The notes beneath the pieces were generated by a model, which saw nothing but the letters and a program-made list of their open reading frames with translations, was not told the origin of the DNA and made no database searches. Of a stretch of 64,000 bases of DNA, positions 1-48,949 are shown piece after piece. A program made the translations under genes and the position numbers. The DNA comes from Paracoccaceae bacterium. GTDB taxonomy: Bacteria > Pseudomonadota > Alphaproteobacteria > Rhodobacterales > Rhodobacteraceae. Every line of letters begins with the position of its first letter. The first letter of the stretch is position 1. The stretch is from positions 62,001 to 126,000 of the forward strand of contig JAAFAB010000002.1 in NCBI GenBank assembly GCA_018222585.1, given 5' to 3'.

Positions 1-2049
1 CTCGGCGAAGGTCCGGTCTTCGCGGGCCAGCCGCTTCAGCAGCGGGGCCGGGCGCAGGCGGTCTTCGCCGGTCTCCTCCGCCCAGGCAGCAAGGGCGCGG
101 GCGACGGTGCCCAGGCCCTCGCCGTCGGCCCAGTACATCAGCCCGCCGCGCCAGGCCGGGAAGCCGTAGCCATGCACATAGGTCACGTCGATGTCCGAGG
201 GGCGCGCGGCAATCCCCTCGTCCAGGATGCGCGCCGCCTCGTTCACCATCGGGTAGAAGATGCGGGCGCGGATCTCGTCATCGGTGAAGCTGCGCGGCGT
301 GATGCCGAGGCGATCCGAGACATCGGCAATGAGCTGATCCACCTCCGGGTCGGGCCGGGGCGTGCGCCCGTCCTCGTAGAGGTAATAGCCCTTGCCGGTC
401 TTCTGTCCGAAGCGGCCAAGGTCGCAAAGCGCATCGGCCACCGGCAGGGCATAGCCCTGGCCTCGGCGCACCATGCGGGCGACGTCCAGCCCGGCCAGGT
501 CGGCCATCTGGAACGGCCCCATGGCCATGCCGAAGCCAGTGATGACGCGGTCCACCGCCTCGGGGCGGGCGCCCTGCTGCAGCAGTTGTTCCGCCTGGTG
601 GTGGCGTTGCCGCAGGATGCGGTTGCCGACGAAGCCGGGGCAGTTCCCGACGATCACCGCCTGCTTGCCCAGGACGGCGGCAAGTGCCAGCGCCGTGGCC
701 AGGGTGTCGGCGTCCGTCCGTGCGCCGCGCACCACCTCAAGCAGGGTCATCACGTTGGCGGGCGAGAAGAAGTGCAGTCCGACCACGCGCTGCGGGCGCC
801 CGGTCGCGGCCGCCATCTCGTCGATGTCGAGGGACGAGGTATTGGTGGCCAGCACGGCCTCGGGTGCCAACAGGCCGTCGAGATCCCGGAACAACTGCTG
901 CTTCAGCGACATGTCCTCGAAGACGGCCTCGATCACCAGGTCGGCGTCCCGTGCGGCCTCAAGCGTCTGGGCCGGGGTGATGCGGGCCAGGCGCGCCTCG
1001 GCCTCGGAGGGGCTGAGGCGTCCGCGCTTCGCCGAGATCTCGTAGTTCTTGCGGATCCGGTCCAGGCCGGCGGCAAGGCCTTCGGCACTCTTGTCGATCA
1101 GGGTCACGGGAAGGCCCGCGTCGGCAAAGCACATGGCAATGCCGCCGCCCATGGTGCCCGCCCCGATCACCGCGGCGCGGGTGATCTTGCCGGCGGTGCC
1201 GGTCAGGCCTTCGGGCAGCCGGGCGGCGGCGCGTTCAGCGAAGAACAGATGGCGCATCGCGGCGGATTGCGGGCCTTCGCGCAGCCGCTGGAAAAGGGCC
1301 TGTTCGGCCTCTTGCGCTGCGCGCCCCTCTAGCGTGAAGGCATTGCCGATGGCCTCGACCAGCAGGTGTGGCGCCTCGGCGCCCCGGGCGCGCTTAAGCA
1401 GGCGCTCTGCGGCGGCTTCGAAGTCGGCGCGCGGACCCAGGGCCGCGCCGGTGGCGCGCCGCGGCGCGTCGAGAAGTCCACGGGCACAGGCGAGGGCGGC
1501 ACGGCGTAGGTCGGCGTGGTCCGACGCGACCTCGCTGAGCAGACCGATGTCCAGGGCCTCGGCGGCCGAGATGCGCCGGGCGCCGGCGATCAGGTCGAGC
1601 GCGGCGGCGGCGCCGATCACGGCGGGCAGGCGGAAGGTGCCGCCCGCGCCGGGGATCAGGCCCAGCTTGACCTCGGGCAGGCCCAGTTCGGTCCCGGGCG
1701 CCGCGACACGACCCGCGCAGGCCAGGGCCAGTTCGAACCCGGCGCCCAGCACCGGCCCGTGCAGTGCCGCGACCACGGGCTTTGCCATGGCCTCGATCCG
1801 CAGGAACAGCTCGGGGGAGGTCGGTTCGACCGGCGGCGCGGCAAGCTGGCGGATGTCGGCGCCGGCGCAGAAGGTCCGCCCCGTGCCCATCAGGACCACC
1901 CCGCGCAGGCTGTCATCGGCCTCGATCGCGTCCAGTCGGGCCGACAGCGCGGTTCGCACCTCATGGCCCATGGCATTCACCGGCGGATTGTCGATTGCCA
2001 GCACGGCGATCTCGCCGTCGCGCTCGAAGCGCACGTAGTCTTGCGTCAT
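1..2049 (-). CDS. FadJ-like enoyl-CoA hydratase / 3-hydroxyacyl-CoA dehydrogenase (3' end off window)
   Basis: Bifunctional beta-oxidation enzyme: hydrates 2-enoyl-CoA and oxidises the resulting 3-hydroxyacyl-CoA with NAD+. The reading frame starts at an ATG and runs 683 codons to the left edge without a stop, so only a short C-terminal tail is missing (family length is about 700). An N-terminal crotonase domain (about 1-190) shows the CAGADI oxyanion-hole segment and LPEVKLGLIPGAGGT. The dehydrogenase part starts near residue 290 with the Rossmann motif GAGTMGGGIA. It lies one base downstream of the tctA-like stop on the same strand, so it is probably the last gene of the carboxylase/transporter operon. 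Its natural acyl-CoA is unknown. Confidence 0.93.
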   Translation of the reverse strand, partial: MTQDYVRFERDGEIAVLAIDNPPVNAMGHEVRTALSARLDAIEADDSLRGVVLMGTGRTFCAGADIRQLAAPPVEPTSPELFLRIEAMAKPVVAALHGPVLGAGFELALACAGRVAAPGTELGLPEVKLGLIPGAGGTFRLPAVIGAAAALDLIAGARRISAAEALDIGLLSEVASDHADLRRAALACARGLLDAPRRATGAALGPRADFEAAAERLLKRARGAEAPHLLVEAIGNAFTLEGRAAQEAEQALFQRLREGPQSAAMRHLFFAERAAARLPEGLTGTAGKITRAAVIGAGTMGGGIAMCFADAGLPVTLIDKSAEGLAAGLDRIRKNYEISAKRGRLSPSEAEARLARITPAQTLEAARDADLVIEAVFEDMSLKQQLFRDLDGLLAPEAVLATNTSSLDIDEMAAATGRPQRVVGLHFFSPANVMTLLEVVRGARTDADTLATALALAAVLGKQAVIVGNCPGFVGNRILRQRHHQAEQLLQQGARPEAVDRVITGFGMAMGPFQMADLAGLDVARMVRRGQGYALPVADALCDLGRFGQKTGKGYYLYEDGRTPRPDPEVDQLIADVSDRLGITPRSFTDDEIRARIFYPMVNEAARILDEGIAARPSDIDVTYVHGYGFPAWRGGLMYWADGEGLGTVARALAAWAEETGEDRLRPAPLLKRLAREDRTFAE

Positions 2050-2050
2050 G

Positions 2051-3583
2051 TCAGTTGCTTTCAGTTCGTTCCGTTCCGGCGGCCGTTTCGCGGGCCAGCC
2101 GTTTGCGTCGGGCACTCAGGGCCTGCCAGATGGACAGGGCCAGCATCAGCGCGGCGCAGGTCAGCAGCCCGGCGCTGATCGGGCGCTCGACGAAGATTGC
2201 CAGGTCACCGCGCGATACCAGCAGGGCGCGCTTGAAGTGCTCTTCGATCAGCGGCCCCAGGATGAAGCCGAGCAGCACCGGCGCGGTCGGGTAGTTCAAC
2301 ATGTTCATCACCATCCCGATGAGGCCGAAGGCCAGGGTGACGCCGACGTCGAAGCCGTTGCCCCGGACGGAATAGACCCCGATGCAGATCAGGAAGAGCA
2401 TGGTCGGATACAGGATACGGTAGGGCACCGAGAGCAGCCGGATCCAGAGCCCGATCAGCGGCACGTTCAGCACCAGAAGGGCGATGTTGCCGATCCAGAA
2501 ACTGGCCACCAGGCCCCAGAACAGGCGCGGTTGCTGGTCGATGAACTCGGGGCCCGGAATGATGCCGTGGATCATCAGCGCCCCCAGCAGGATCGCCATG
2601 ACCGCATCGCCCGGCACGCCCAGGCTGAGCGTCGGGATGAAGGCCGCCTGTACCGAGGCGTTGTTGGCCGACTCCGGCGCCACGATCCCCTCGACCGCGC
2701 CCTTGCCGAAGCGGGAGGGATCCTTGGCCGCGCGGCGTTCAACCGCATAGGAGACGAAGGTGGCCATCGACGGGCCCGAGCCGGGCAGGGCGCCGATGAT
2801 CGAGCCGATGACGGCGCCGCGCGCCGCCGGCCAGGAGAAGCGCGACCAGTCATCGCGGGTCGGCAGCATCGAACGATAGGTGATGTGCTTGGCCAGCACC
2901 TTCGGGCGCTCGCGGCGGATCAGCATGGTCAGGATCTCGGACACGCCGAAGAGGCCCATGGCGATGGCCACCAGCTGAAAGCCCTCGGCCATCTCGAAGT
3001 ACCCGAAGGTGAAACGCATCTGGCCCGAGTTGATGTCGGTGCCCGGGATGGCCAGCGCCAGGCCCAGGACGACCATGGCCAGCCCCTTCAGCGGCGAACC
3101 GACGCCCAGCGTGGAGGCGGCGATGAGCCCCAGGAACATGGCGGCGAAATACTCGGCCGAGTTGAAGCTGAGGGCCAATTGCGACAGGGCCGGGGTGAAG
3201 AGCATCAGCGCGCAGATGGCGAAGACCCCGCCGGCGAAGCTGGCGATCGAGGTCATGAACAGCGCCACCCCCGCGCGCCCGTTGCGGGCCATGGGATAGC
3301 CGTCAAGGCAGGTGATCGCCGCCGTGGCGGTGCCGGGGATGTTCAACAGGATCGCCGCGGTCGAACTGCCATACTGCGCGCCGTAGAAGATCCCGGCCAG
3401 CATGATCAGGCCGACCATCGGGTCGAGGTAGTAGGTCAGCGGCAGCAGCATCGAGATTGCGGTCAGCGCTCCGAGGCCCGGGAGCACGCCGACGAAGGTG
3501 CCGACGGTGACGCCGATGAAGCAGAACATGAGGGCGTCCAGGCTGAGGGCCGCCGAGAAGCCTTGCAAGAGAGAGTCGAGCAT
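2051..3583 (-). CDS. tctA: Tripartite tricarboxylate transporter large permease, TctA family
   Basis: Large membrane subunit (510 aa) of a tripartite tricarboxylate transporter (TTT), which takes up carboxylates delivered by a periplasmic binding protein. The protein is a string of about 12 hydrophobic segments with the family hallmark near residues 30-90 (GVLPGLGALTAISMLLPLTY, then FYGAQYGSSTAAILLNIPGT) and a second conserved region around ALPGSGPSMATFVSYA. Length is normal for TctA. It sits 7 bp downstream of tctB and 1 bp before the FadJ-like gene, so all four genes on this strand look co-transcribed. TTT substrates (citrate, aromatic or dicarboxylic acids) cannot be told from the permease. 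Confidence 0.95.
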   Translation of the reverse strand: MLDSLLQGFSAALSLDALMFCFIGVTVGTFVGVLPGLGALTAISMLLPLTYYLDPMVGLIMLAGIFYGAQYGSSTAAILLNIPGTATAAITCLDGYPMARNGRAGVALFMTSIASFAGGVFAICALMLFTPALSQLALSFNSAEYFAAMFLGLIAASTLGVGSPLKGLAMVVLGLALAIPGTDINSGQMRFTFGYFEMAEGFQLVAIAMGLFGVSEILTMLIRRERPKVLAKHITYRSMLPTRDDWSRFSWPAARGAVIGSIIGALPGSGPSMATFVSYAVERRAAKDPSRFGKGAVEGIVAPESANNASVQAAFIPTLSLGVPGDAVMAILLGALMIHGIIPGPEFIDQQPRLFWGLVASFWIGNIALLVLNVPLIGLWIRLLSVPYRILYPTMLFLICIGVYSVRGNGFDVGVTLAFGLIGMVMNMLNYPTAPVLLGFILGPLIEEHFKRALLVSRGDLAIFVERPISAGLLTCAALMLALSIWQALSARRKRLARETAAGTERTESN

Positions 3584-3590
3584 GTCGCGG

Positions 3591-4034
3591 TCACCACCAG
3601 AAGGGATTGAGGGAGATGCGCAACCCGAGGACGAAGATCAGGTATCCCAGGGCTGCAATCACCAGCCCGGCGAGCGCGGCGCGCAGCGGGCGGAACGGGG
3701 CATCTGCGATTGCCGCCAGCACGACGACCCCCAGGGTCGCGGGGATGAGGCCAAGGGGCCGGGCCGCGGCGGCGAAGAACAGCATCGACGCCGAGACCGC
3801 CAGCACCGGGCGCCAGCTGAAGGGAAAGGGCCTGCGGGCGGCGAAGCCGCTCTCGATCACCAGGCCTGCGGAAAATCCGATCAGCGCCACGCCGATGGCG
3901 ACCGGCATGTAGCCGGGCCCCATCCGTTTCAGCGATCCCAGGGAAAGTTCGCTGCCCTTGAGAACCATGAAGGCCCCCAGAGCACCAATCGACAGTGCGG
4001 CCAGAAGCTCTGGCCAGTTGATTTGTCTCGACAT
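3591..4034 (-). CDS. tctB: Tripartite tricarboxylate transporter small permease, TctB family
   Basis: Small membrane subunit of the TTT transporter, 147 aa with four predicted hydrophobic helices (about 10-30, 45-60, 75-110, 118-140). It is poorly conserved in sequence, as TctB proteins are, but its size, topology and position directly before tctA make the call secure. A strong ribosome-binding site (GGAGGAG) precedes the ATG. The gene begins 24 bp after the carboxylase stop. The matching binding protein is encoded divergently at 7608-8588, so the transporter genes are split across the control region. Confidence 0.88.
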   Translation of the reverse strand: MSRQINWPELLAALSIGALGAFMVLKGSELSLGSLKRMGPGYMPVAIGVALIGFSAGLVIESGFAARRPFPFSWRPVLAVSASMLFFAAAARPLGLIPATLGVVVLAAIADAPFRPLRAALAGLVIAALGYLIFVLGLRISLNPFWW

Positions 4035-4058
4035 GTTCGGCTCCTCCCCAAGCCGCTC

Positions 4059-7000
4059 TTACCAGGCGTCGATCATTGGACGCTTCGAGTGCTTCGGCAG
4101 GCGCGCCTCGGGCACCGCCTGCATGGCGCGGGCCAGGGCCGAGCGGGTCTCTGCCGGGTCGATCACCGCGTCGATGCTGAGGAAGGGCGCGATGTTGACC
4201 GCCTTGCCCACCTCGTACATTTCCGCCACGATCTCCTGGTAGCGCGCTTCCCGCGCGCTTTCGTCCGCGATCGCCTCAAGCTCCCTGCGGAAGCCGAGCC
4301 GTGCCGCGCCCTCCAGTCCCATGGCGCCGAACTCTCCGGAAGGCCAGCTCAGCGTCATCTGGCTGCTTTCGTGGAAACTGCCCCCCGCCATGGCCATTGC
4401 GCCAAGACCGTAGGCCTTGCGCAGGATGACCGAGAAGAACGGCGTGTTCAGGCTGGCCCCGACCAGGAACAGGCGGCTGAAATGGCGCACGTTGGCCCGC
4501 GTCTCGGCATCCGGTCCCACCATGAAGCCGGGGGTGTCGATCAAGCTGATCACCGGCAGGTCGAAGGCATCGCAAAGCTGCAGGAACCGCGCCGCCTTGT
4601 CGGCTTCGTCGCGGTCCACCGCGCCGCCATTCACGGCCGCCACATTGGCCAGGATGCCGCAGGGTTTGCCCTCGATCCGTGCCAGGGCGGTGACCAGGGC
4701 CGGGCCGAAGCCGGCGCGCAGTTCCAGCACGCTGTCGCGGTCGGCCAGGGTTTCGATCAGCGGGCGCACGTCGTAGGCGCGCTTGCGATCCTCGGGCACG
4801 GCACCGCGCAGCTGGCGGGTGTCATTGGCCTCCCAGCTGTCGATCGGCCCCTGGAAGTAGGACAGGTACTTGCGGGCCGCCTCGGTGGCCTCCTGCTCGT
4901 CCGCGACCAGGATGTCGATCACGCCGTTGCGGCTGTGCACCGAGGTCGGGCCGACCTCTTCGGGACGGAAGACGCCCAGGCCGGCGCCCTCGATCATCGC
5001 CGGGCCGCCCATGCCGATATTGGCATCCTCGGTGGCGATCACCACGTCGCAGACGCCAAGCACGGCAGCATTGCCGGCAAAGCAGCGCCCCGAGACGATG
5101 CCCACCATCGGCGCCACGCCCGAGTGCCTGGCGAGTTGCCAGAAGGTCGGGTTGGCCAGGTTCACGCCGGGCCGGTTGTCGGTGTCGCCGGGCCGCCCGC
5201 CGCCGCCTTCGGCGTAGACCACCACCGGCAGGGCCGCGCGTTCGGCGACCTTCAGCAGCCGGTCCGTCTTGCGGTGACCGATGTTGCCCTGGGTGCCGGC
5301 AAACACCGTGTAGTCGTAGGACATCACCGCGGCGCGGCCCTTCTCCGCGCCGAAGGTGTCGGCGTTGATCGTGCCGATGCCGGCCACCAGGCCGTCGGCC
5401 GGGCTGATCTTGCGCAGGTGCTCCTCTGGGTGGCGGCTGCGTTGCGCGGCAACGGCCAGCGCGCCGTACTCCACGAAGCTGCCGCTGTCGCAAAGGTCGT
5501 CGATATTCTCACGCGCGGTGCGCTTGCCCTTGTCGTGGCGGCGCGCCACCGCCTCGGGGCGCGCAGCGTCCAGACCGCTGTCGCGCCGCGCCAGGGCCTC
5601 GGCCAGGTCAGGCCGGATCCGGTCAGGGTCGAAGGCGGCTTCCTCGCTGCGTGCCGCACCGGCGATCTCGCCCGGCTCGACCACGACCAGCGCATCGCCT
5701 GTCGAGACGACCTCGCCCGCGCACGCAAGGCGGCGCACATGGCCCGCCACATCCGCGGTGACCACATGCTCCATCTTCATGGCTTCCAGGACGGCGACCG
5801 GTGTGCCCAGGGCGACCGGTTCCCCCTCTTCCACCAGCAGCGAGACCAGCACCCCGCCCATGGGGGCCGCGATACCGGCTAGGCCGTCCCCGACCTCGGC
5901 CCCGGTCGGAGCTGTCGCGACAGGGCTGTCCGAAACGCCGCGGTGGCTTTGGGCCGGGGCCGGCGCGCGAACGAGTTCAGCGACCCGGTCATCAACCATC
6001 CGGGTGGTGACGGCCCCGGTATCGACCTCGTCGAGCGCCAGCAGCTTGCGCAGGAAGCCGATGTTGGTCTCGACCCCGGCGATCAGGAAGTCGGACAGCG
6101 CGCGGTCCAGGCGCTGACGCAGCGACGCCCAGTCATGGCCGCGAACGATGACCTTGGCCAGCAGCGAGTCATAGAAGGGAGAGAGCGTCAGACCTGCATA
6201 GCCGGAGCCGTCGATGCGCAGGCCGGGGCCCGTCGGCACCTCGTAGGAGGTGATCGTGCCATCGGCGATCCGGGCCATGCCGTCCTCGGACATGATCTCG
6301 GCATTGACGCGGGCCTGCACGGCGAACCCGCGGGGCGCAGGCAGGCTGTCCTGGGACAGGCCCAGATCGGCAAGGGTCTCTCCGGCGCAGACACGGATCT
6401 GTGCCGCGACCAGGTCGATGTCCATGATCTCTTCGGTCACCGTGTGTTCGACCTGGATGCGGGGGTTCACCTCGATGAAGGCGTAGTCTCCGCGGTCCTC
6501 GTCGACCAGGTATTCGACGGTGGCGAGGCCACGGTAGTTCACCGCGGCGGCCATGCGCACGGCATCTTCCTGCATGGCTTGGGTCAGGGCCTCGGGCACC
6601 CAGGGACTGGGCGCGATCTCGAGAAGCTTCTGGTTGCGCCGCTGAACGGTGCATTCGCGGTTCCACAGATGGACGATGCCGCCCTGTCCGTCGCCCAGGA
6701 CCTGCACCTCGATGTGGCGTGCGCGCTCGATCAGCCGTTCCATGTAGAGCGCGTCGTCGCCGAAAGCGGACTTCGCCTCGGCGCGGCAGCTCTTGATGGC
6801 TGCGTCCAGGTCTTCCGCCTGCCGCACCGTCCGGATGCCGCGACCACCGCCACCCGACACGGCCTTGACCATCACCGCGGTCCCTGCGGGCTGCGAAGTG
6901 AAGAAGGCCAGCGCATCCTCGGTCGAAGTCACGGCCTCGAGCCCCTCGACCACGGGAACGGCAAGCGATACCGCAAGGGCGCGGGCACGGGCCTTGTCGC

Positions 7001-7355
7001 CCAGCCGGGCCAGGCTGTCGGGCAGCGGGCCCACGAAGGTGATCCCCGCCTCCTCGCACTGGCGCGCGAAGGTGGCGTTCTCGGAGAGGAAGCCGTAGCC
7101 GGGGTGGACAAAATCACAGTCGGCGGAACGGGCCGCGTCAACGACTGCGTCGATGTCGAGATAGGCCAGTGCTCCGCGCCCGGGGATGAGTAGCGATTCA
7201 TTGGCTGCGGTCACATGGGCTGCAGACCTGTCATCTTCGGGGTGAATCGCCACGCTGATGATGCCGAGCTCGGCACAGGCCCGTGCCACGCGAATCGCGA
7301 TCTCACCCCGATTCGCGATCAGGAGTTTCTTTCCGGACAGACTTTTTTCCTTCAA
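4059..7355 (-). CDS. Single-chain biotin-dependent acyl-CoA carboxylase (BC-BCCP-CT fusion)
   Basis: A 1098-aa multidomain carboxylase that should biotinylate itself and carboxylate an acyl-CoA using ATP and bicarbonate. Domain order: biotin carboxylase (about 8-455, starting LLIANRGEIAIRVA, ATP-grasp loop KAVSGGGGRGI), biotin carrier domain (about 490-565, biotin site EAMKMEH), then fused N- and C-terminal carboxyltransferase halves (about 600-1090). This architecture and length match the single-chain long-chain acyl-CoA carboxylases described from Rhodopseudomonas palustris and Mycobacterium avium. It is not the two-subunit propionyl-CoA enzyme, which is encoded separately in this window. 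The chosen start is TTG, preceded by AGGAG at a spacing of 7, because the first ATG would remove conserved sequence. It leads the minus-strand operon with tctB, tctA and a FadJ-like gene. The acyl-CoA substrate is unknown. Confidence 0.93.
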   Translation of the reverse strand: MKEKSLSGKKLLIANRGEIAIRVARACAELGIISVAIHPEDDRSAAHVTAANESLLIPGRGALAYLDIDAVVDAARSADCDFVHPGYGFLSENATFARQCEEAGITFVGPLPDSLARLGDKARARALAVSLAVPVVEGLEAVTSTEDALAFFTSQPAGTAVMVKAVSGGGGRGIRTVRQAEDLDAAIKSCRAEAKSAFGDDALYMERLIERARHIEVQVLGDGQGGIVHLWNRECTVQRRNQKLLEIAPSPWVPEALTQAMQEDAVRMAAAVNYRGLATVEYLVDEDRGDYAFIEVNPRIQVEHTVTEEIMDIDLVAAQIRVCAGETLADLGLSQDSLPAPRGFAVQARVNAEIMSEDGMARIADGTITSYEVPTGPGLRIDGSGYAGLTLSPFYDSLLAKVIVRGHDWASLRQRLDRALSDFLIAGVETNIGFLRKLLALDEVDTGAVTTRMVDDRVAELVRAPAPAQSHRGVSDSPVATAPTGAEVGDGLAGIAAPMGGVLVSLLVEEGEPVALGTPVAVLEAMKMEHVVTADVAGHVRRLACAGEVVSTGDALVVVEPGEIAGAARSEEAAFDPDRIRPDLAEALARRDSGLDAARPEAVARRHDKGKRTARENIDDLCDSGSFVEYGALAVAAQRSRHPEEHLRKISPADGLVAGIGTINADTFGAEKGRAAVMSYDYTVFAGTQGNIGHRKTDRLLKVAERAALPVVVYAEGGGGRPGDTDNRPGVNLANPTFWQLARHSGVAPMVGIVSGRCFAGNAAVLGVCDVVIATEDANIGMGGPAMIEGAGLGVFRPEEVGPTSVHSRNGVIDILVADEQEATEAARKYLSYFQGPIDSWEANDTRQLRGAVPEDRKRAYDVRPLIETLADRDSVLELRAGFGPALVTALARIEGKPCGILANVAAVNGGAVDRDEADKAARFLQLCDAFDLPVISLIDTPGFMVGPDAETRANVRHFSRLFLVGASLNTPFFSVILRKAYGLGAMAMAGGSFHESSQMTLSWPSGEFGAMGLEGAARLGFRRELEAIADESAREARYQEIVAEMYEVGKAVNIAPFLSIDAVIDPAETRSALARAMQAVPEARLPKHSKRPMIDAW

Positions 7356-7428
7356 GTTTCAGCTCCTGGCAGGCGGTTTTCGTCATTGGTTGCGAACATG
7401 CTATCTCCCCCAATTCGTTCTTTTGAAT

Positions 7429-7442
7429 AGAACATATGGTCT
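7429..7442. promoter_or_regulatory. Near-palindromic operator box 1 (candidate IclR site)
   Basis: The box AGAACATATGGTCT is a dyad with 12 of 14 positions symmetric. It lies 74 bp upstream of the carboxylase start in the divergent control region. A second copy with one base changed lies 130 bp away at 7559-7572. Repeated dyads between divergent catabolic genes fit the binding mode of the IclR regulator encoded at 11069, but binding is inferred. Confidence 0.6.
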
Positions 7443-7539
7443 GAACTCGCCGCAAGAGCTATGTTTGGACATCTGGCGCTTTCGCGGGAAGATTTCAGTA
7501 TTCTCCCTGAATTTCCGAACCAAAGGGCATTGCCAGACG

Positions 7540-7553
7540 AGAAGATATGGTTA
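7540..7553. promoter_or_regulatory. Degenerate operator box (third copy)
   Basis: AGAAGATATGGTTA matches box 1 at 11 of 14 positions and lies 19 bp before box 2 on the same face of the sequence. It may be a weaker site that helps cooperative binding, or chance similarity in an AT-richer stretch. Confidence 0.35.
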
Positions 7554-7558
7554 TTTTC

Positions 7559-7572
7559 AGAACATGTGGTCT
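7559..7572. promoter_or_regulatory. Near-palindromic operator box 2 (candidate IclR site)
   Basis: AGAACATGTGGTCT differs from box 1 at a single central base, and the G after the box is also conserved. It ends 35 bp upstream of the tctC start codon, overlapping where the RNA polymerase or leader would lie. The 252-bp divergent gap (7356-7607) holds no gene and is clearly more AT-rich than its surroundings, as expected of a control region. Confidence 0.6.
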
Positions 7573-7607
7573 GTCAAAAGGACCATCTTGAGAATTTGGG
7601 AGGAACC

Positions 7608-8588
7608 ATGAAATCTTCGAAGACGCTCGCCCTTGGCCTTGCCCTTGGGCTTTCAACCGCATCCCTCGGACACGCCCAGGACTACCCGAGCGAGCCCATC
7701 AAGGTGCTGGTCGGCTTCAGCGCCGGCAGCTCGATCGACACTGTGGCCCGCATCATGGCCGAGAAGCTGACGGAGTCGCTGGGACAGCCGGTCGTGGTCG
7801 AGAACCGCACCGGGGCCAACGGGATGCTGGCGGCGACCGCCGTGGCCCAGGCCGATCCCGACGGCCACACTGTGCTGTTCTCGAACTCGAGCTCGATCAC
7901 CGTGAACCCGACGCTGTTCAAGGACATCCAGTATCAGCCGCTTGAGGATTTCGCACCGATCACAAAGGTCGTCGAAACGCCGTTCATCCTGGTTACCAAC
8001 CCCGAAAATGCCCGTACCGAGGGCGTGACGGATGTCGCGTCGCTGGTCGAGACCGCCCGCGCCGCACCGGGGGATCTGTCCTATGGCTCGGCCGGGATCG
8101 GCAACCTGATTCACCTCGCCACAGAACTGCTGGCGCAGAAGACCGGCACCGAGATGACCCACATTCCCTACAAGGGTGCGGCGCCGATGGAGGTCGGGCT
8201 GCTCTCGGGTGAGATCGATCTGGCCTTCGACACACCCTCGGGAATGCCCCAGATCGACGCAGGCCGACTGACCGCGCTGGCGGTGTCTGGGCCGGATCGC
8301 TGGCCTGGCCTGCCCGACACGCCGACGATGATGGAAGCCGGGATCGATGGCTTCAACGTGACCTTCTGGACCGGTGTCTTCATGCCGGACGGCACTGATC
8401 CCGCCATCGTCCAGACCTTCTACGACGCCATCGTAAGTGCGACCGAAGATCCCGACACCCGCGCCAAGCTGGAGCTGCAGGGCCGTCCGGTGGTGCCGAC
8501 CCCCGAGGACTTCCGCAGCCAGATCGAGGTCGAGACCGAGACCGCCGCGGAGATCATCAAGTCGGCAAACATCGTCGTCGGCCAGTAA
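7608..8588 (+). CDS. tctC: Tripartite tricarboxylate transporter substrate-binding protein (TctC/Bug family)
   Basis: Periplasmic binding protein of 326 aa that captures the carboxylate for the TctA/TctB permease. The N-terminus is a Sec signal peptide (two lysines, then a leucine/alanine-rich core, cleavage near GHAQD). The mature part begins YPSEPIKVLVGFSAGSSIDT, the usual Bug-family opening, and retains the VVVENRTGANG and PYKGAAP segments. I chose the ATG at 7608 because GGGAGGA sits just before it and the signal peptide begins there; an upstream in-frame extension has no homology features. It is divergent from the rest of the transporter and 76 bp before the acyl-CoA synthetase gene. Confidence 0.94.
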   Translation: MKSSKTLALGLALGLSTASLGHAQDYPSEPIKVLVGFSAGSSIDTVARIMAEKLTESLGQPVVVENRTGANGMLAATAVAQADPDGHTVLFSNSSSITVNPTLFKDIQYQPLEDFAPITKVVETPFILVTNPENARTEGVTDVASLVETARAAPGDLSYGSAGIGNLIHLATELLAQKTGTEMTHIPYKGAAPMEVGLLSGEIDLAFDTPSGMPQIDAGRLTALAVSGPDRWPGLPDTPTMMEAGIDGFNVTFWTGVFMPDGTDPAIVQTFYDAIVSATEDPDTRAKLELQGRPVVPTPEDFRSQIEVETETAAEIIKSANIVVGQ

Positions 8589-8664
8589 ACCCGACGGCTG
8601 TTTCAGTGCGCGGCCGGCTGGGGTCGGCCGCGCAAGACACTCCGCCAAAGAACAGAGATACCAG

Positions 8665-10842
8665 ATGACGCCTACCCCCCTTCGACCGAGCGCGCAGCTC
8701 GACCGGCTCTTCAATCCCCGGTCGATCGCCATTGTCGGCGCCTCGGCCAACGCCAGTTCCTTCGGTGGCCGCTTCATGCAGAACCTGTCGGGGTTCGATG
8801 GGGCCCTCTACCTGGTGAATCCGCGCTATGACGAGATTGGCGGCGTGCAGTGCCATGCCGCACTTGCGGATCTGCCCGAAGTGCCGGACTGCGTCCTGGT
8901 GGCGACCGGCCTGTCGATGGTCGAGGCGATCGTCGAGGAGGCCATCGCGGTCGGCGCGGGCGGTGTGGTGCTGATCGCGTCGGGCTTCGCCGAGACCGGC
9001 GATGCCGAAACCGCCGCCGTGCAGGACCGCATCGCAACCCGTGCACGGGAAAGCGGGATGCCCCTGGTGGGCCCCAATACCATCGGCTTCGTCAACTTCG
9101 CCTCGCGGGGCGGGGCCACGTTCCTCACCGGGCTTGACCTCGAGAAGGGGTTCGACACCCCCGCAGAGCGGCGTGCGATCGGCCTGGTCAGCCAGTCCGG
9201 CGCGCTTGGCCTGTCGCTGGCCCAGTCGATGAACCGGGAGATTTTCTTCAGCCATGTCCTGTCCTGCGGCAATTCCGCGGATGTCGACGTGGCAGATTGC
9301 GCCAACTTCCTCGTAGACGATCCGGGCTGCAAGGTGATCGTCTGCCTGCTGGAGGGGCTGGCAGAGCCGCGACGGATGGAAGAGGTCTGCCGCCGCGCGA
9401 CGCTGGCCGGCAAACCGCTGATCCTGTGCAAGATGGCCCGGGGCACATCCGGGGCCGAGGCGGCGGCCTCTCATACCGGCAGCCTTGCCGGATCCCAGGC
9501 GGCCTATCGCAGCATGATCGACCGGGCCGGCGGCATCATGGTCGACGACTTCGAGGACCTGCTCGAGATCGCGGCCTTCTTCTCCAAGGTCGGGGCGCCG
9601 TCGAGTGACGGCAGCATGGTCATCGCGACCTCCGGCGGGGCCGCCATCATGGCCGCCGACGCCGCTGAAACGGCGGGCGTTCCCCTGCCGCAGCCGGATG
9701 GCGCCGTCCTGGCGACCCTGGCCGAGCATATTCCCAGCTTCGGCGCAGTCCGCAACCCGGCGGATGTTACCGCCGAGGTGGTGAACAACATGGCCTCGTT
9801 GACCGCTTGCGTCGAGACCGTCCTGGCCGACAACAGCTATGGCCTGATCGTCATTCCGCATCCACTGGCCTATGACACGGCAACCCCCCGGATCCAGCTG
9901 CTCGACGACCTGGCGGGCAAGGCCGGCAAGGTGATCGCCATGGTCTGGCTTTCGGGGTGGCTGGAAGGGCCGGGCGCGGCAGAGATCGAGGCCAGCCGTA
10001 ACCTCGCGCTGTTCCGCTCCAATGCCACCTGCTTTACGGCGATCCGGTTGTGGGCCGACTGGCACCGCCGGCGGTCTGCGGCCGCAGAGCGGGCGCCGAG
10101 GCTGGTCGAAGAGGCCGCAAGGAGTGCGGTGGCCGGCAAGTTGGCTGCCTGGGGGACCTCCACGATCCCCGAGCGCGAGGCAAAGGCTCTTCTCGCCGCC
10201 TATGGTGTGCCCGTCACCGGCGACCGTCGCGCCGCCTCGGCCGAGGAGGTGCGCATCGCGGCCGCAGAGATGGGTGGGCGCCTGGTGATGAAGATCGACA
10301 GCCCCGACATTGCCCACAAGACCGAGGTCGGCGGCATCGCGCTTGGCCTGCAGGGCGCCGAGGCGGCTGTCGCGGCCTACGAGAAGATGGTGGTCGCTGT
10401 CCGCACGGCTGTACCTTCCGCGCGCATCGACGGGGTGATCCTGCAGCACATGGTGCCCGAGGGGCTGGAGATCGTCGTCGGCGCCCGCGTTGACCCGGCC
10501 TTTGGTCCTCTGGTGCTGGTCGGGCTCGGTGGCGTCCTGGTCGAACTGATGGCCGACAGCGTCACGGCACCTGCGCCGGTGTCTGCATTGCAGGCAAAGG
10601 CGATGCTGGCCAGACTGCGGGGCGCAAGCCTGCTGGATGGCTTCCGGGGGCAGCCCGCCGTCGATCGCAGGGCCCTGTCCGAAATCATCGCGCGGGTGTC
10701 CGAGTTCGCAGCCGATCATGGGGATGTCCTGGCGGAAATGGACGTGAACCCGCTCATCTGCCGGGGCGCCGAGATCATCGCGGCCGACGCCTTGCTGGTT
10801 CTAGGGGCCCGGGAGGCTGAGGATGCAGCAACTTCGGCATGA
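8665..10842 (+). CDS. ADP-forming acyl-CoA synthetase (acetate--CoA ligase family)
   Basis: A 725-aa fused ADP-forming acyl-CoA synthetase, which activates a carboxylic acid with CoA and ATP through a phosphohistidine. Domains in order: CoA-binding Rossmann domain (about 10-140, IAIVGASANASSFGG), succinyl-CoA-ligase-like domains (about 150-460) with the phosphorylatable histidine in AASHTGSLAGS, and a C-terminal ATP-grasp domain (about 490-710, LVMKIDSPDIAHKTEVGGI). It follows tctC on the same strand and probably activates the acid imported by that transporter, giving the acyl-CoA for the divergent carboxylase and FadJ-like enzyme. Substrate range in this family runs from acetate to aryl acids and cannot be fixed here. 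Confidence 0.92.
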   Translation: MTPTPLRPSAQLDRLFNPRSIAIVGASANASSFGGRFMQNLSGFDGALYLVNPRYDEIGGVQCHAALADLPEVPDCVLVATGLSMVEAIVEEAIAVGAGGVVLIASGFAETGDAETAAVQDRIATRARESGMPLVGPNTIGFVNFASRGGATFLTGLDLEKGFDTPAERRAIGLVSQSGALGLSLAQSMNREIFFSHVLSCGNSADVDVADCANFLVDDPGCKVIVCLLEGLAEPRRMEEVCRRATLAGKPLILCKMARGTSGAEAAASHTGSLAGSQAAYRSMIDRAGGIMVDDFEDLLEIAAFFSKVGAPSSDGSMVIATSGGAAIMAADAAETAGVPLPQPDGAVLATLAEHIPSFGAVRNPADVTAEVVNNMASLTACVETVLADNSYGLIVIPHPLAYDTATPRIQLLDDLAGKAGKVIAMVWLSGWLEGPGAAEIEASRNLALFRSNATCFTAIRLWADWHRRRSAAAERAPRLVEEAARSAVAGKLAAWGTSTIPEREAKALLAAYGVPVTGDRRAASAEEVRIAAAEMGGRLVMKIDSPDIAHKTEVGGIALGLQGAEAAVAAYEKMVVAVRTAVPSARIDGVILQHMVPEGLEIVVGARVDPAFGPLVLVGLGGVLVELMADSVTAPAPVSALQAKAMLARLRGASLLDGFRGQPAVDRRALSEIIARVSEFAADHGDVLAEMDVNPLICRGAEIIAADALLVLGAREAEDAATSA

Positions 10843-11068
10843 GGCCGTTTGCATCGGGTCGAAGGGCGGGTGTGCCGATCCCCGTGGACCTGAGGGGGAC
10901 GCCGGTACATCCGGCGTCCACGTCATCTGTCCGGGGAGCGAAGACGCATTGGTCGCCGCGGCCACTTCTGATAGAAATTTCCGGATGACACGGCCCAATC
11001 CCCGGGGTTCGATCAAAACGGGTTCAGGCGTAATGCCAATTCCAACCAACGAATAGGTCGAGGTAAAT

Positions 11069-11794
11069 GTGACAGCCCAGGACAGCACAAGTCCCGACAA
11101 GGATAAAGGATCGCGCGGTGTTGCCGCGGTGGACCGAGCGCTCTCGATCATCGCGGCTCTCGAAGCCAGCACGATCCCACGCAACCTCTCCGAGATCGCT
11201 CGTGCGACCGGGCTCTACAAGAGCACGATCCTGAGGCTGATGGAGTCATTGCAATCGGCCGGCTACGTGATCCGGATCGAAGAGTCCAAGTATGCACTAG
11301 GCCCGACCATCATGCAGCTTGGCCTGGCCTACGAACGCAGCAATCCGCTGCGCCATCACTTCCTGCCGGTCATGGAACGTCTCGTATCAATCGGAACGGA
11401 AAGCCCTTCTTTCCACGTGCGCCAGACCGCGACCGAGCGGCTGTGCCTGTTCAGGCTGGATTCGCATCATTCCACCCTGGACCGTGTGCATGTCGGGGAC
11501 CGCTTGCCGCTTTACCGAGGCGCGGCAGGTAAGATCCTGCGCGCTTTCGGTGATCCTCCCGAGCAGGGCAGCGATATGGATTTGATCCGGCAGGAGTGCT
11601 TCGCCATCTCGCTCGGAGAGAGGGACAAGCTTTGTGCAGGCATTGCCGCGCCCGTATTCGCCGGATCGGAGCGCCTGCTGGGGGCCCTGTCTTTTTCGGG
11701 GCCGAGGGAACGTTTCCGCGAAGAGGACATTGCTCGTATGCGGCCGCAGATGATGGATGCCGCAAGGGAGCTCTCCATCGGGTTGGGCGGTTAG
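11069..11794 (+). CDS. IclR family transcriptional regulator
   Basis: A 241-aa regulator with an N-terminal winged helix-turn-helix (about 13-75: AAVDRALSIIAALE, then LSEIARATGLYKSTILRLME) and a C-terminal effector domain (about 85-240, with the AGIAAPVF signature). The start is GTG at 11069, preceded by GAGG; no nearby ATG is in frame. It lies 226 bp after the acyl-CoA synthetase gene on the same strand, and that gap holds nothing else I can recognise. Position makes it the likely regulator of the transporter/carboxylase island, acting at the repeated boxes in 7429-7572. Its ligand could be the imported acid or an acyl-CoA. Confidence 0.92.
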   Translation: MTAQDSTSPDKDKGSRGVAAVDRALSIIAALEASTIPRNLSEIARATGLYKSTILRLMESLQSAGYVIRIEESKYALGPTIMQLGLAYERSNPLRHHFLPVMERLVSIGTESPSFHVRQTATERLCLFRLDSHHSTLDRVHVGDRLPLYRGAAGKILRAFGDPPEQGSDMDLIRQECFAISLGERDKLCAGIAAPVFAGSERLLGALSFSGPRERFREEDIARMRPQMMDAARELSIGLGG

Positions 11795-11803: not shown

Positions 11804-12245
11804 CTATCGGTCGGGCTGACTCTGCCACGGCTTGCCAGTTTTGATGATCGCGTTGGCGATTGTGACCAGCCTCCGCGCGATTGCGAGACTGACCAGCTTG
11901 TGCGGCTTTCCTCGCTTGTTGACACGCTTTGCTACCGGCTTTGGAACTGGATTGTGGGCGGGCTCAGGCAATTCGGCGATCAACATCGCCGCAGATACGG
12001 GCCCAATTCCGGGGATTGATCGGAAGAGGTTCGCCTTTGCTGCACGTGGCTCTGTCTGCGCAATGACGTTTTCGATCCTCCGTTCGATGGCAGAGATCTG
12101 GGCGTCGAGCTCTCGTCCTGCCTCAGGCCTGGATACCATGCAGCGTGCGATGAGTTCTGCGTCGATCCGGTCTGTCTTCACCCGCGTGCCCCGAGATAAT
12201 GCGAGGGCCCTGATCCGGGCGCGAGAAACCTGGTCAGATCAGCGG
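11804..12245 (-). pseudogene. IS110-family transposase remnant
   Basis: Decayed transposase. The frame reads through KTDRIDAELIAR, the N-terminal DEDD-type signature of IS110/IS1111 enzymes, and through SIPGIGPVSAAMLIAELPE, the helix-hairpin-helix segment of the C-terminal half. In intact relatives these motifs are well over 100 residues apart; here they are separated by only about 50, so an internal deletion is present. The C-terminal catalytic-serine region is also replaced by a short tail ending HKLVSLAIARRLVTIANAI. Homology appears to continue upstream of the only possible start (GTG at 12181) as far as an in-frame TGA near 12243, another sign of decay. It ends 10 bp from the iclR stop, in convergent orientation. 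Confidence 0.82.
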
Positions 12246-13053: not shown

Positions 13054-14280
13054 CTAGCTGTCCCGTGGCGCCCCGCCCTGGAAGGCGTTGTCGCCGTCGT
13101 AGCGGCAGGGGGCCTCCTGCATCTGCAGGTGCAGGTGGGTGCCCTGGAAGGGATGGGCGCGGGCCAGCGCCTCGTCGACCTCGATTCCCAGCCCCGGCGC
13201 ATCCGACAGGCTGACATGGCCCCCCTCGACGCGGATCGTGCCCTTGATGAGGGCGTCGTGGAACGGGGTCTCGATGGTCTCGGCCATCAGCAGGTTGGGG
13301 ATCGTCGCTGCCATGTGCAGGTTGGCCGCCCATTCGACCGGTCCCGCGTAGAGATGAGGCGCCATCTGGGCGCCGTAGCTCTGCGCCAGCACGGCGATCT
13401 TGCGCCCCTCCCAGAGGCCGCCCGTGCGGCCGAGAGCAGGTTGCAGGATTGCCGCGCCGGCCTCCAGCGCGGCCCGGAATTCAGGCAGGGTGGTCAGGCG
13501 CTCTCCGGTCGCGACGGGCAGGCCCGACGCGCGGCAGACCTCGGCCAGGCCCTGCAGGTCATCCGGCGGCACGGGCTCTTCGAACCACAGCGGATCATAG
13601 TCGATGATGGCACGGGCCATGCGCAGCGCGCCCGCCCCGGTGAACTGGCCATGGGTGCCGAAAAGCAGATCCGCATGGGTCCCGACGGCCTCGCGCACGG
13701 CGGCGCAGGTGCGCGCCGAAAGCGACAGGTCCGAAAGCGCCGGCATGTGCCCGCCGCGGATCGTGTAGGGCCCGGCGGGGTCGAACTTCACCGCCGTATA
13801 GCCGCGCGCCACCAGATCCCGGGCACTGTCGGCGGCCATCTCGGGGCTGGTCCAGAAGGCCGAGATATCGTGATGCGGCAGGGGATAGAGGTAGGAATAG
13901 CAGCGGATGCGCGGGTTCATCATCCCGCCGAGCAGGGCGTAAACCGGCCGCTCCCGCGCCTTGCCGAGGATATCCCAGCAGGCGATCTCCAGCCCCGAGA
14001 ACGCGCCCATGACCGTCAGGTCGGGCCGCTGCGTGAACCCGGCGGAGTAGGCGCGGCGGAACATCAGCTCGATGTTCTCGGGGGTCTCGCCCTGCATGTG
14101 GCGTGCAAAGACATCCTCGATCACCGCCCGCATGGCTTCGGGGCCGACCGAGGCCGCGTAGACCTCGCCCCAGCCGGTGATGCCGCAGGCGGTGGTCAGC
14201 TTGACCAGGATCCAGTAATGCCCGCCCCAGCCTGGCGCGGGTGGCGCGGTGACGATGATGTCGAGGTCGCTCAGTTTCAC
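13054..14280 (-). CDS. Mandelate racemase/muconate lactonizing enzyme family protein (probable acid-sugar dehydratase)
   Basis: A 408-aa enolase-superfamily enzyme. The N-terminal capping domain (about 1-125) is followed by the TIM barrel with KFDPAG on the second strand region, metal-ligand positions around the LLFGTHGQF, WFEEPVPP and ATGERL segments, and a late-barrel histidine in MAPHLYAG. Members of this group mostly dehydrate sugar acids after Mg2+-assisted proton abstraction; the exact acid cannot be assigned. It is 21 bp downstream of a zinc alcohol dehydrogenase on the same strand, suggesting a two-gene unit for a sugar-derived alcohol or acid. It could instead be a racemase or cycloisomerase. 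Confidence 0.88.
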   Translation of the reverse strand: MKLSDLDIIVTAPPAPGWGGHYWILVKLTTACGITGWGEVYAASVGPEAMRAVIEDVFARHMQGETPENIELMFRRAYSAGFTQRPDLTVMGAFSGLEIACWDILGKARERPVYALLGGMMNPRIRCYSYLYPLPHHDISAFWTSPEMAADSARDLVARGYTAVKFDPAGPYTIRGGHMPALSDLSLSARTCAAVREAVGTHADLLFGTHGQFTGAGALRMARAIIDYDPLWFEEPVPPDDLQGLAEVCRASGLPVATGERLTTLPEFRAALEAGAAILQPALGRTGGLWEGRKIAVLAQSYGAQMAPHLYAGPVEWAANLHMAATIPNLLMAETIETPFHDALIKGTIRVEGGHVSLSDAPGLGIEVDEALARAHPFQGTHLHLQMQEAPCRYDGDNAFQGGAPRDS

Positions 14281-14301
14281 AGGCTGCGGCCCCCCTCGGC
14301 C

Positions 14302-15387
14302 CTATTTCAGCACGATCACGTTGCGTCGCGCCTTGCCCTCCAGCGTGTCGGCGATCGCCTCGTTGATCTGGTCCAGCCGCCAGCGGCCCGAGATCAGCTC
14401 GTCCAGCTTCAGGCGGCCCTGGCGGTACATGTCGATCATCCAGGGGATATCGCGCTTGATCACCACGTTGCCCATCTTGGACCCGACGATGCCCTGGCCC
14501 GCATCGGCCATGATCAGCGGCGAGTAGCTGGAGGTCGTATCGCCGTGCGGCATCCCCACCATGACGATCCTGCCGCCGCGTGCAAGGTAGCGCGGTGCCA
14601 TGTCGTAGACCGCGCCGACACCGACGGTGACCAGCACCGCGTCGGCACCGCGTCCGAGGATCTTCTTCACCTCGCTCCAGGGCTTGCCCTCGGCGCTGAC
14701 CACGTCGGTGGCGCCGAACTCCGTCGCCGCGTCCAGCTTCTCGGCCACCAGGTCGACGGCGACGATGCGCCGGGCGCCGGCAATCCGCGCGCCCTGGATG
14801 GCGTTGAGGCCGACACCCCCCGCGCCGATCACCACCACATCGTCCCCGGCGCGGATCTCGCTGGCATAGACGGCGGCACCGACGCCGGTGATCACCCCGC
14901 AGGAGATCAGGCTGGCCGCATCCATCGGCACGTCCTCGGGGATGGCGACCACCTGGCTCTGGTCGATCACCATCTTCTCGGCGAAGGCGCCTGACGCCAT
15001 GGCCTGCATCACGGGGGTGCCGTCGGGCAGGCTCAGCGCACTCTGGCCGACGGGGTCGAAAGGCGTCTCGCAGATGGTCGGCTGGCCCGAGCCGCAGCAA
15101 TCGCAATGGCCGCAGGCGCGGATCAGCGTCACGCAGACCGCGTCGCCGACCGCAAGCCCCTGTACCCCGGCGCCAAGCGCGGTCACCCGCCCCGCCGCCT
15201 CGTGGCCGTAGACCGCCGGAAGATGGCCGCCGAAACCGCCCTGCCAGAACGAGATATCCGAGTGGCAGATCGCCACCGCCTCCAGCTCCACCTCGACCTC
15301 GCCCATGCCGGGCGCACGCAGGTGCACCTCCTCGATGGTCATCGGCGCGTTGTGGTTCCGGCAAATCGCCGCCTTGATCGTCTGCAT
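14302..15387 (-). CDS. Zinc-dependent alcohol dehydrogenase (MDR family)
   Basis: A 361-aa medium-chain dehydrogenase/reductase oxidising an alcohol with NAD(P)+. It has the catalytic zinc cysteine in AICHSD, the GHEAAG histidine-glutamate pair, a four-cysteine structural zinc lobe (CGHCDCCGSGQPTIC, about 93-107) and the dinucleotide motif GAGGVG near residue 188. Overall it resembles class III/formaldehyde-dehydrogenase-type enzymes, but that does not prove activity on S-hydroxymethylglutathione. It is the first gene of a unit with the enolase-superfamily gene. GGGAGG precedes the ATG. A dyad at 15449-15467 upstream might be its operator. Confidence 0.92.
   Translation of the reverse strand: MQTIKAAICRNHNAPMTIEEVHLRAPGMGEVEVELEAVAICHSDISFWQGGFGGHLPAVYGHEAAGRVTALGAGVQGLAVGDAVCVTLIRACGHCDCCGSGQPTICETPFDPVGQSALSLPDGTPVMQAMASGAFAEKMVIDQSQVVAIPEDVPMDAASLISCGVITGVGAAVYASEIRAGDDVVVIGAGGVGLNAIQGARIAGARRIVAVDLVAEKLDAATEFGATDVVSAEGKPWSEVKKILGRGADAVLVTVGVGAVYDMAPRYLARGGRIVMVGMPHGDTTSSYSPLIMADAGQGIVGSKMGNVVIKRDIPWMIDMYRQGRLKLDELISGRWRLDQINEAIADTLEGKARRNVIVLK

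Positions 15388-47416: not shown

Positions 47417-48949
<1,533 letters not shown>

What the first reader, a model, noticed from the sequence alone, without database searches (positions are those of the whole stretch)
1..11794. Coherent island for import, activation and carboxylation of an unknown acid
A tripartite carboxylate transporter, an ADP-forming acyl-CoA synthetase, a single-chain biotin-dependent acyl-CoA carboxylase and a FadJ-like enzyme sit around one divergent control region with an IclR regulator at the far end. The logic is import, CoA activation, alpha- or gamma-carboxylation, then hydration/oxidation. I know no described pathway with this exact set. Inference: the acid may be branched, isoprenoid-like or aromatic, since carboxylation followed by hydration is used in leucine and citronellate/geraniol degradation.
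Basis: partly seen in the sequence, partly recalled or inferred. Interest (0 to 1): 0.72.

Follow-up and report, generated by a model that had tools for sequence, protein, structure and literature searches.

The report
Co-regulated acid-degradation island, substrate unknown

Summary
In detail: TctA/B/C, an ADP-forming acyl-CoA synthetase, a single-chain biotin carboxylase, a FadJ-like enzyme and an IclR regulator lie as stated around one divergent promoter. The set is incomplete. Past the window edge the operon continues into a thiolase-fold protein with a DUF35 partner, then a second divergon (TcuBA, HIBDH-like, SMP-30 / hydrolase, ABC importer, aldehyde dehydrogenase). A sister genome of the same genus keeps the 25.35-kb order (two contigs, mostly 95.8% DNA identity, sharp ends). 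AGACCN4GTTCT occurs three times in the 5.15-Mb genome, all in this island's two divergent promoters; related sites sit at the core promoter of five other genomes with the IclR gene (one weak). The isoprenoid/gamma-carboxylation inference is not supported: the carboxylase is of the LCC/YCC group, nearer alpha- than gamma-carboxylating enzymes, and the host has its own PCC and MCC. The 'thiolase' has Gly at the nucleophile position and the YDxF tyrosine of Ltp2/Sal retro-aldolases, so aldol cleavage is likelier than thiolysis, not certain. Outside the genus the core divergon recurs; the carboxylase add-on was found only as remnants (Martelella). Substrate unresolved.

The parts
1..2049 (-). FadJ-like enoyl-CoA hydratase / 3-hydroxyacyl-CoA dehydrogenase (cut by window edge; whole gene G000:C35:61971 to about 64049). 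Followed outside the window by THIO (C35:60799-61965, -) and DUF35 (C35:60404-60802, -)
   Evidence: Pfam ECH_1, 3HCDH_N, 3HCDH; both active-site motif sets present
2051..3583 (-). TctA, large permease of a tripartite tricarboxylate transporter
   Evidence: PF01970 512.8 bits
3591..4034 (-). TctB, small permease
   Evidence: PF07331 58.3 bits
4059..7355 (-). single-chain biotin-dependent acyl-CoA carboxylase (BC-BCCP-CT), LCC/YCC group
   Evidence: Pfam domain order; PDB 4rcn 1050.9 bits full length, 5fif 606.5 bits; CT ranking; tree
7429..7442 (-). operator-like site 1, AGACCATATGTTCT
7559..7572 (-). operator-like site 2, AGACCACATGTTCT
7356..7607 (.). divergent promoter region between carboxylase and TctC
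   Evidence: nearly identical in G408
7608..8588 (+). TctC, periplasmic solute-binding protein (signal-peptide-like start, read by eye)
   Evidence: PF03401 210 bits
8665..10842 (+). ADP-forming acyl-CoA synthetase, fused alpha-beta
   Evidence: CoA_binding_2, Succ_CoA_lig, ATP-grasp_5; PDB 9y43/8wzu best; SHTGS histidine motif
11069..11794 (+). IclR-family regulator, right end of the island
   Evidence: HTH_IclR and IclR_C; 98% in G408, 79% in Martelella, 68% in Palleronia, 95% and 70% in G358 and G128
11804..12181 (-). IS110-type transposase remnant just outside the island
   Evidence: PF02371 24.1 bits, cut-off 21.3

Best explanation
It is one IclR-controlled catabolic island (G000:C35:48,441-73,794; window -13,559 to 11,794) of 21 genes in two divergons. 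SHOWN by sequence: the genes, their order, its conservation in a sister genome, purifying selection in the 15 genes compared, and an operator-like motif confined in this genome to its two divergent promoters. INFERRED, in order of confidence: (a) the IclR protein binds the motif and switches both divergons (about 0.75); (b) TctCBA imports an organic acid and the fused ADP-forming synthetase makes its CoA ester (0.7); (c) the FadJ-like protein hydrates and can oxidise the enoyl-CoA (0.7); (d) the single-chain carboxylase adds CO2 to the alpha carbon of that acyl-CoA or of a short acyl-CoA released later (0.5; alpha over gamma 0.75); (e) THIO with its DUF35 partner splits a 3-hydroxyacyl-CoA by retro-aldol chemistry, like Ltp2 and Sal, to an aldehyde or ketone and a shorter acyl-CoA (0.5), and the island's aldehyde dehydrogenase oxidises the aldehyde (0.4). 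The second divergon supplies a second importer, a hydrolase and lactonase-like protein, and alcohol/aldehyde and TcuAB dehydrogenases that probably release or prepare the acid. The substrate is not identified.
For: Gene identities. Same gene order in G408 on two contigs, mostly 95.8% DNA identity, sharp ends; dN/dS 0.019-0.31 in 15 of 15 genes compared. AGACCN4GTTCT: 3 sites in 5,151,146 bases, all in the two divergent promoters (reversed-pattern control 11). The equivalent core promoter has AGACCATTAGTTCT in G408, AGACCGATAGTTCT in Martelella, AGACCAAATGTTCT in G128, AGAACTCATGTTCT (1 mismatch) in G358 and a weaker GGATCAACTGTTCT (2 mismatches) in Palleronia, all with an IclR of 68-98% identity. 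Carboxylase. Synthetase beside carboxylase is recurrent: AMP-forming type within 8 kb in 38 of 87 loci, CoA-transferase III in 16. THIO: the thiolase nucleophile column is Gly86, and YD[S/A]F and the later His stand, in 9 of 9 sequences of its kind (window genome and sister included); Gly86 falls in the column of CtSal Gly89, the Gly that the Sal paper says replaces the nucleophilic Cys. DUF35 partner. Independent MaoC-THIO-DUF35 group next to a single-chain carboxylase in a gammaproteobacterial MAG, L087. ACS (53%) and HIBDH (67%) genes are neighbours in G318, which links enzymes of the two divergons.
Against: No biochemical data; no substrate. The FadJ-like protein keeps both catalytic motif sets, which fits a thiolase after it better than an aldolase. 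NCBIfam puts THIO in an 'acetyl-CoA acetyltransferase' subfamily (PRK06158, 513 bits, cut-off 421). THIO has a Cys (Cys87) next to Gly86, one pairwise HMMER alignment (BbsB) sets the catalytic Cys against Cys87, and 2 of 6 multiple alignments gap that stretch and decide nothing. THIO has Ser, not His or Cys, in YDxF, and His where Ltp2 has Tyr344, so its second catalytic residue matches neither Ltp2 nor Sal. Only 1 of 87 other carboxylase loci has a THIO neighbour and 0 of 87 an ADP-forming synthetase or IclR by this search. The add-on was not found in the stretches read around the core in G128, G358 and Palleronia, so the two divergons need not serve one substrate. G358 has no TcuAB near its core, and in G128 a second motif copy lies inside the hydrolase gene, whose match there is in two pieces.
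Confidence: 0.55

Rival explanations
1. Leucine/citronellate-type logic: gamma-carboxylation of a beta-branched enoyl-CoA, hydration, then HMG-lyase-type cleavage, with THIO-DUF35 standing in for the lyase.
For: HMG-lyase chemistry is itself a retro-aldol (recalled), which THIO-DUF35 could do; an AtuA-family gene lies beside the same core divergon in Palleronia.
Against: CT part far from MCC-beta (151 bits) and GCC-beta (129 bits) compared with LCC/YCC (588-595); host has a separate MCC; no AtuA or HMG-lyase gene among the 21 island genes named here.
Confidence: 0.12
2. THIO-DUF35 is a thiolase (BbsAB or archaeal type), and the pathway is ordinary beta-oxidation of an unsaturated or dicarboxylic acid, with the carboxylase handling a short acyl-CoA product.
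For: FadJ-like protein has both catalytic motif sets; NCBIfam subfamily name acetyl-CoA acetyltransferase, and BbsA/BbsB models and 7pxp/7yvy match; FadJ-like homologues elsewhere sit beside genes annotated as acetyl-CoA acyl- or acetyltransferase; Cys87 is next to the nucleophile position.
Against: The nucleophile column is Gly and the HDxF histidine is Tyr in THIO and the other 8 sequences of its kind, in the 4 of 6 alignments that resolve the stretch; 5 of those 9 have Ser or Ala at the Cys87 position.
Confidence: 0.25
3. Two unrelated pathways that happen to be neighbours: a tricarballylate-type core divergon and an acyl-CoA add-on.
For: Core occurs without the add-on in the stretches read from G128, G358 and Palleronia.
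Against: Shared motif in both promoters and nowhere else in the genome; both keep the same order in G408; Martelella keeps THIO-DUF35 and remnants of ACS and FadJ with the core; ACS-HIBDH pair in G318.
Confidence: 0.2

Closest known systems
Single-chain acyl-CoA carboxylases: MapLCC (PDB 4rcn) and Deinococcus radiodurans YCC (PDB 5fif; name and source recalled)
   Same: BC-BCCP-CT on one chain; full-length match 1050.9 bits to MapLCC; CT part scores 594.7 and 587.6 bits to the two
   Different: A long single branch inside no well-supported clade of the 105 relatives in the tree; paired with an ADP-forming synthetase and TTT, while many relatives pair with AMP-forming synthetases or CoA-transferases
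Steroid side-chain retro-aldolases Ltp2-ChsH2 and Sal-Shy
   Same: Thiolase-family sequence, DUF35 partner, Gly at the nucleophile column, YDxF tyrosine
   Different: YDSF, not YDHF/YDCY; His at the Tyr344/Gln352 position; bifunctional FadJ-like hydratase-dehydrogenase, where Shy is a MaoC-type hydratase (abstract)
Benzoylsuccinyl-CoA thiolase BbsAB
   Same: Thiolase subunit plus DUF35 subunit
   Different: HDAF is YDSF in THIO; catalytic Cys replaced by Gly in the alignments that resolve it, with a Cys next to it
Acyclic terpene utilisation (Atu) and leucine (Liu) pathways (recalled)
   Same: Activation, carboxylation, hydration, cleavage as a series
   Different: Carboxylase lineage differs; no AtuA or HMG-CoA lyase among the named island genes
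Tricarballylate utilisation TcuAB
   Same: TcuA 685.9 bits (cut-off 369) and TcuB 395 (cut-off 246.6) pass NCBIfam cut-offs (TcuB is below the second model, 438.1 against 524)
   Different: Embedded in a larger regulon with hydrolase, ALDH and acyl-CoA enzymes; substrate here not shown

Membership tests
Single-chain LCC/YCC carboxylase | BC, BCCP and CT on one chain in that order | tested here: met
   Pfam order Biotin_carb_N/CPSase_L_D2/Biotin_carb_C, Biotin_lipoyl, Carboxyl_trans in 1098 aa
Single-chain LCC/YCC carboxylase | CT closest to LCC/YCC, apart from PCC, MCC and GCC | tested here: met
   594.7 and 587.6 bits against 231 or less for the rest; apart from own PCC and MCC in the tree (those two branches are very long)
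Single-chain LCC/YCC carboxylase | preference for long-chain acyl-CoA (MapLCC) | not testable with these tools
   needs an assay
MCC/GCC gamma-carboxylases | CT of the MCC/GCC lineage, two subunits | tested here: not met
   best 151 and 129 bits; single chain
Ltp2/Sal retro-aldolase | DUF35 partner | tested here: met
   adjacent overlapping gene with zf-ChsH2 and OB_ChsH2_C
Ltp2/Sal retro-aldolase | no thiolase nucleophile Cys; catalytic Tyr in YDxF | tested here: met
   Gly86 in the column of CtSal Gly89, in 4 of 6 multiple alignments (2 gap the stretch); Tyr285; caveat Cys87 next to it and one pairwise alignment against
Ltp2/Sal retro-aldolase | second catalytic residue (Ltp2 Tyr344, Sal Cys304) | tested here: inconclusive
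   Ser287 and His335 at these places
SCP2-type or BbsAB thiolase | catalytic Cys nucleophile and HDxF | tested here: not met
   YDSF in all alignments; Gly at the Cys column where resolved, Cys87 adjacent
ADP-forming acyl-CoA synthetase superfamily | CoA-binding, Succ_CoA_lig and ATP-grasp parts and the phospho-histidine motif | tested here: met
   (role of the histidine recalled)
Tripartite tricarboxylate transporter | TctA, TctB and TctC together | tested here: met
TcuAB tricarballylate dehydrogenase system | passes curated TcuA and TcuB cut-offs | tested here: met
   TcuA passes both models, TcuB one of two
TcuAB tricarballylate dehydrogenase system | oxidises tricarballylate | not tested
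   no assay; a TcuA 75% identical to this one in Shinella lies beside acnA, with a PrpF-domain gene two genes further

The most novel reading that the evidence does not exclude
A new aerobic pathway for a polycarboxylate-bearing compound (for example a tricarballylate ester): hydrolase and TcuAB deal with the polycarboxylate, while the rest is activated by an ADP-forming ligase, alpha-carboxylated by a single-chain carboxylase and split by a thiolase-fold aldolase acting on an alpha-carboxylated 3-hydroxyacyl-CoA, which would give an aldehyde and malonyl-CoA, a cleavage I know from no pathway (recall, not searched).
Probability: 0.08. Interest if true: 0.8.

Novelty: new variant of a known kind. 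Interest (0 to 1): 0.46.

Why it matters
Single-chain carboxylases are widespread and structurally known, but few have an assigned physiological substrate (recalled). Here one sits in a defined, probably single regulon with a transporter, a ligase, a hydratase-dehydrogenase and a likely C-C cleaving enzyme, so its substrate can be found by growth and induction tests. The island also gives a testable regulator-operator pair and a YDSF variant of the DUF35-partnered thiolase-fold family.

Tried and rejected
Rejected: gamma-carboxylation/isoprenoid reading (kept as a rival at 0.12); carboxylase as the cell's PCC or MCC (both present elsewhere: window 47.3-52.3 kb and G000:C20); THIO as an ordinary thiolase (kept as a rival at 0.25). 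A formal resemblance to the thaumarchaeal 3-HP/4-HB cycle set (ADP-forming ligase, carboxylase, hydratase-dehydrogenase, DUF35-linked thiolase; recalled) was considered and dropped because of the THIO active site and because no 4-hydroxybutyryl-CoA dehydratase is among the genes identified. A fumonisin-type catabolic cluster was considered because recalled fum clusters hold TcuA/TcuB-like genes; of 31 papers 8 were listed (listing and abstract starts), none with the term 'tricarballylate dehydrogenase', and a term search in PMC4845651 gave no cluster; no aminotransferase was identified in the island, so it stays a recalled lead only.

Literature on the single-chain carboxylase of D. radiodurans: none found; the LCC paper PMC4319993 is not held. 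Several G318 open frames chosen for Pfam were wrong-frame or gave no family. GC content shows no clear step over the island; one 2-kb bin just left of it falls to 0.58. I made no structure prediction and no fold search. MapLCC and GCC are not in the tree; they are compared by score only. In one search the two host CT branches are very long, so the root is not informative.
Full report
WHAT IS THERE. The window is G000:C35:62001-126000. The genus is Pseudooceanicola by contig-length matches: same-genus contigs G398:C23 (690,946 bases) and G404:C13 (1,424,421 bases) have the lengths of named P. atlanticus and P. nanhaiensis contigs, and their carboxylase rows are identical to those. The left operon is tight: carboxylase, 24 bases, TctB, 7 bases, TctA, FadJ-like gene (1 base on if its ATG at 2049 is used, overlapping if the GTG at 2115 is), 5 bases, THIO, 4-base overlap, DUF35. 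THIO and DUF35 lie outside the window (C35:60799-61965 and 60404-60802).

THE ISLAND IS LARGER. Left of DUF35, convergent, lies an aldehyde dehydrogenase behind a branched-chain-type ABC importer, an alpha/beta hydrolase and a small unknown protein; divergent from these are an SMP-30 protein, a 3-hydroxyisobutyrate-dehydrogenase-like protein (below the NCBIfam cut-offs), TcuA and TcuB. That makes 21 genes in two divergons. About 1.6 kb left of TcuB lies a weak DDE-transposase match (21.5 bits, under the Pfam cut-off of 23), and about 10 bases right of the IclR stop an IS110 remnant.

CONSERVATION. In sister genome G408 the block is found on two contigs, 95.8% identical over 9,800 and 13,576 aligned bases and 92.8-93.7% in the FadJ part; the contig break lies in or near the FadJ-like gene, and the alignments stop at TcuB and at the IclR stop. 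A 5-kb piece elsewhere in the window is 91-93% identical to G408, so this is a close sister and the comparison does not by itself prove transfer. Synonymous and nonsynonymous rates give dN/dS 0.019-0.31 for the 15 genes compared (FadJ, two permeases, two ATPases and the small unknown gene were not compared). Martelella mediterranea plasmid pMM593 keeps the core divergon (63-84%), IclR 79%, THIO 85%, DUF35 64%, and only the ends of ACS (residues 554-713) and FadJ (538-713); carboxylase and TctABC gave no match in the 31-kb stretch. Palleronia, G128 and G358 have the core and IclR without the add-on in the stretches read; G358 also lacks TcuAB there. In 388 family genomes the ABC binding protein at E <= 1e-130 was found in 3 including the window's own.

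REGULATION. Two copies of AGAACATRTGGTCT lie in the carboxylase-TctC promoter; a relaxed palindrome AGAMCATRTGKTCT has no other place in the genome. Aligning the core's divergent promoter across G000, G408, Martelella and Palleronia exposed AGACCN4GTTCT. This has exactly three places in 5,151,146 bases, C35:52921, 69429 and 69559, i.e. the two divergent promoters of the island; the reversed pattern, as control, has 11. The motif was derived from these sites and Martelella's, so the count is not an independent test for them; the independent parts are its absence elsewhere in the genome and, at the same promoter, AGACCAAATGTTCT in G128 and AGAACTCATGTTCT in G358. G128 also has a copy inside its hydrolase gene, and Palleronia has only a 2-mismatch version. 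That IclR is the binder is inferred.

CARBOXYLASE. Best solved relatives are MapLCC and the chain 5fif, which I take as D. radiodurans YCC (recalled). Its CT part is much nearer these than PCC, and nearer PCC than MCC or GCC. PMC4673880 (passages) describes two lineages, alpha and gamma carboxylation; PMC6491548 (passages) reports LCC activity from C2 to C16 with a 350-fold lower Km for palmitoyl- than acetyl-CoA. In a tree of 108 CT rows (window, own PCC and MCC, 105 relatives) the window enzyme is a long single branch in no starred set up to half of the rows; five same-genus rows fall together in another clade. In the same genus 9 of 22 genomes, the window's included, match at E <= 1e-150; only G408 has the close one (98%; others 50-56%). 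Of 107 loci given, 87 had at least 2.5 kb on both sides: AMP-forming synthetase within 8 kb 38 (22 within 1.5 kb), ECH/FadJ 17, CoA-transferase III 16, ABC importer 9, acyl-CoA dehydrogenase 9, TctA/TctC 3, THIO 1, ADP-forming synthetase 0, IclR 0. Some loci are duplicates (L033/L153, L077/L156 identical; L026/L122 nearly so), so n is about 84. The link between activation and carboxylation is thus recurrent; here the synthetase and transporter types are others.

THIO-DUF35. The closest solved chain is 4u4e, named Thiolase (409 bits), then 9myr and 6ok1. 6ok1 is Ltp2 (PMC12329534, passages); 9myr is CtSal by its YDCY motif and by spacing, since its second Gly of LGGAS falls at number 89 when Tyr of YDCY is set to 302. 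The Sal paper says that a Gly of CtSal stands where SCP-2 thiolases have the nucleophilic Cys, so that CtSal cannot thiolyse (passage). In 4 of 6 multiple alignments THIO Gly86 shares the column of that Gly and of the Cys of 7yvy, BbsB and three gene products annotated as thiolases; 2 of 6 gap the stretch. Against this, the pairwise alignment with BbsB is shifted by one and faces its Cys with THIO Cys87. The HDxF histidine of thiolases is Tyr285 in every alignment, and the later His (335) stands where Ltp2 has Tyr344 and Sal Gln352. Hence aldol cleavage is favoured, not shown. The FadJ-like partner keeps both catalytic motif sets (their roles recalled), and NCBIfam names the THIO subfamily acetyl-CoA acetyltransferase.

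HOW IT MAY WORK. Acid in through TctCBA; CoA ester by the ADP-forming synthetase; carboxylation at the alpha carbon; hydration/oxidation by FadJ-like; cleavage by THIO-DUF35; aldehyde to acid by ALDH. The order of carboxylation and cleavage is not settled. ACS (53%) followed by HIBDH (67%) in G318 suggests that a HIBDH/ALDH oxidation product is what the synthetase activates. TcuAB suggests a tricarboxylate intermediate, but G358 shows that the core can occur without TcuAB beside it.

VERDICT. A real, coherent, probably single-regulon catabolic island with a rare enzyme combination and unknown substrate; the isoprenoid inference is not borne out. New variant of a known kind.

Noticed in passing
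window 13054-15387: Mandelate racemase/enolase-family sugar-acid dehydratase-like gene next to a zinc alcohol dehydrogenase, right of the IS110 remnant; outside the island.
   Followed up: partly
window 47312-52328: The host's own propionyl-CoA carboxylase genes; the beta subunit scores 1009.8 bits against PDB 3n6r.
   Followed up: yes
L087:7367-13384: In a gammaproteobacterial MAG a MaoC hydratase, THIO-type thiolase-fold gene and DUF35 gene lie divergent from a single-chain carboxylase: an independent case of the same association.
   Followed up: partly
L166:9085-10443 and L168:10556-12255: AtuA-family genes beside homologous ABC importers in Palleronia and Diaphorobacter; in Palleronia they lie next to the core divergon, which has no carboxylase add-on there.
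   Followed up: no
L108-L116: In nine genomes of the family the best match covers only residues about 480-1098 (BCCP plus CT), open frames 591-684 aa: a split form of the single-chain carboxylase.
   Followed up: no
L041:822-22203: A betaproteobacterial MAG has a single-chain carboxylase, a BCCP-CT fusion and a separate CT gene, three AMP-forming synthetases, two CoA-transferases and TctC genes within 23 kb.
   Followed up: no
L127:10959-11336: Small conserved gene between the core operator and the hydrolase; no Pfam match even at E 0.5, nor for the gene at the same place in Martelella.
   Followed up: partly
L189:5311-6188: In G128 the hydrolase homologue matches in two pieces with a 5-base gap, as if the frame were broken there.
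   Followed up: no
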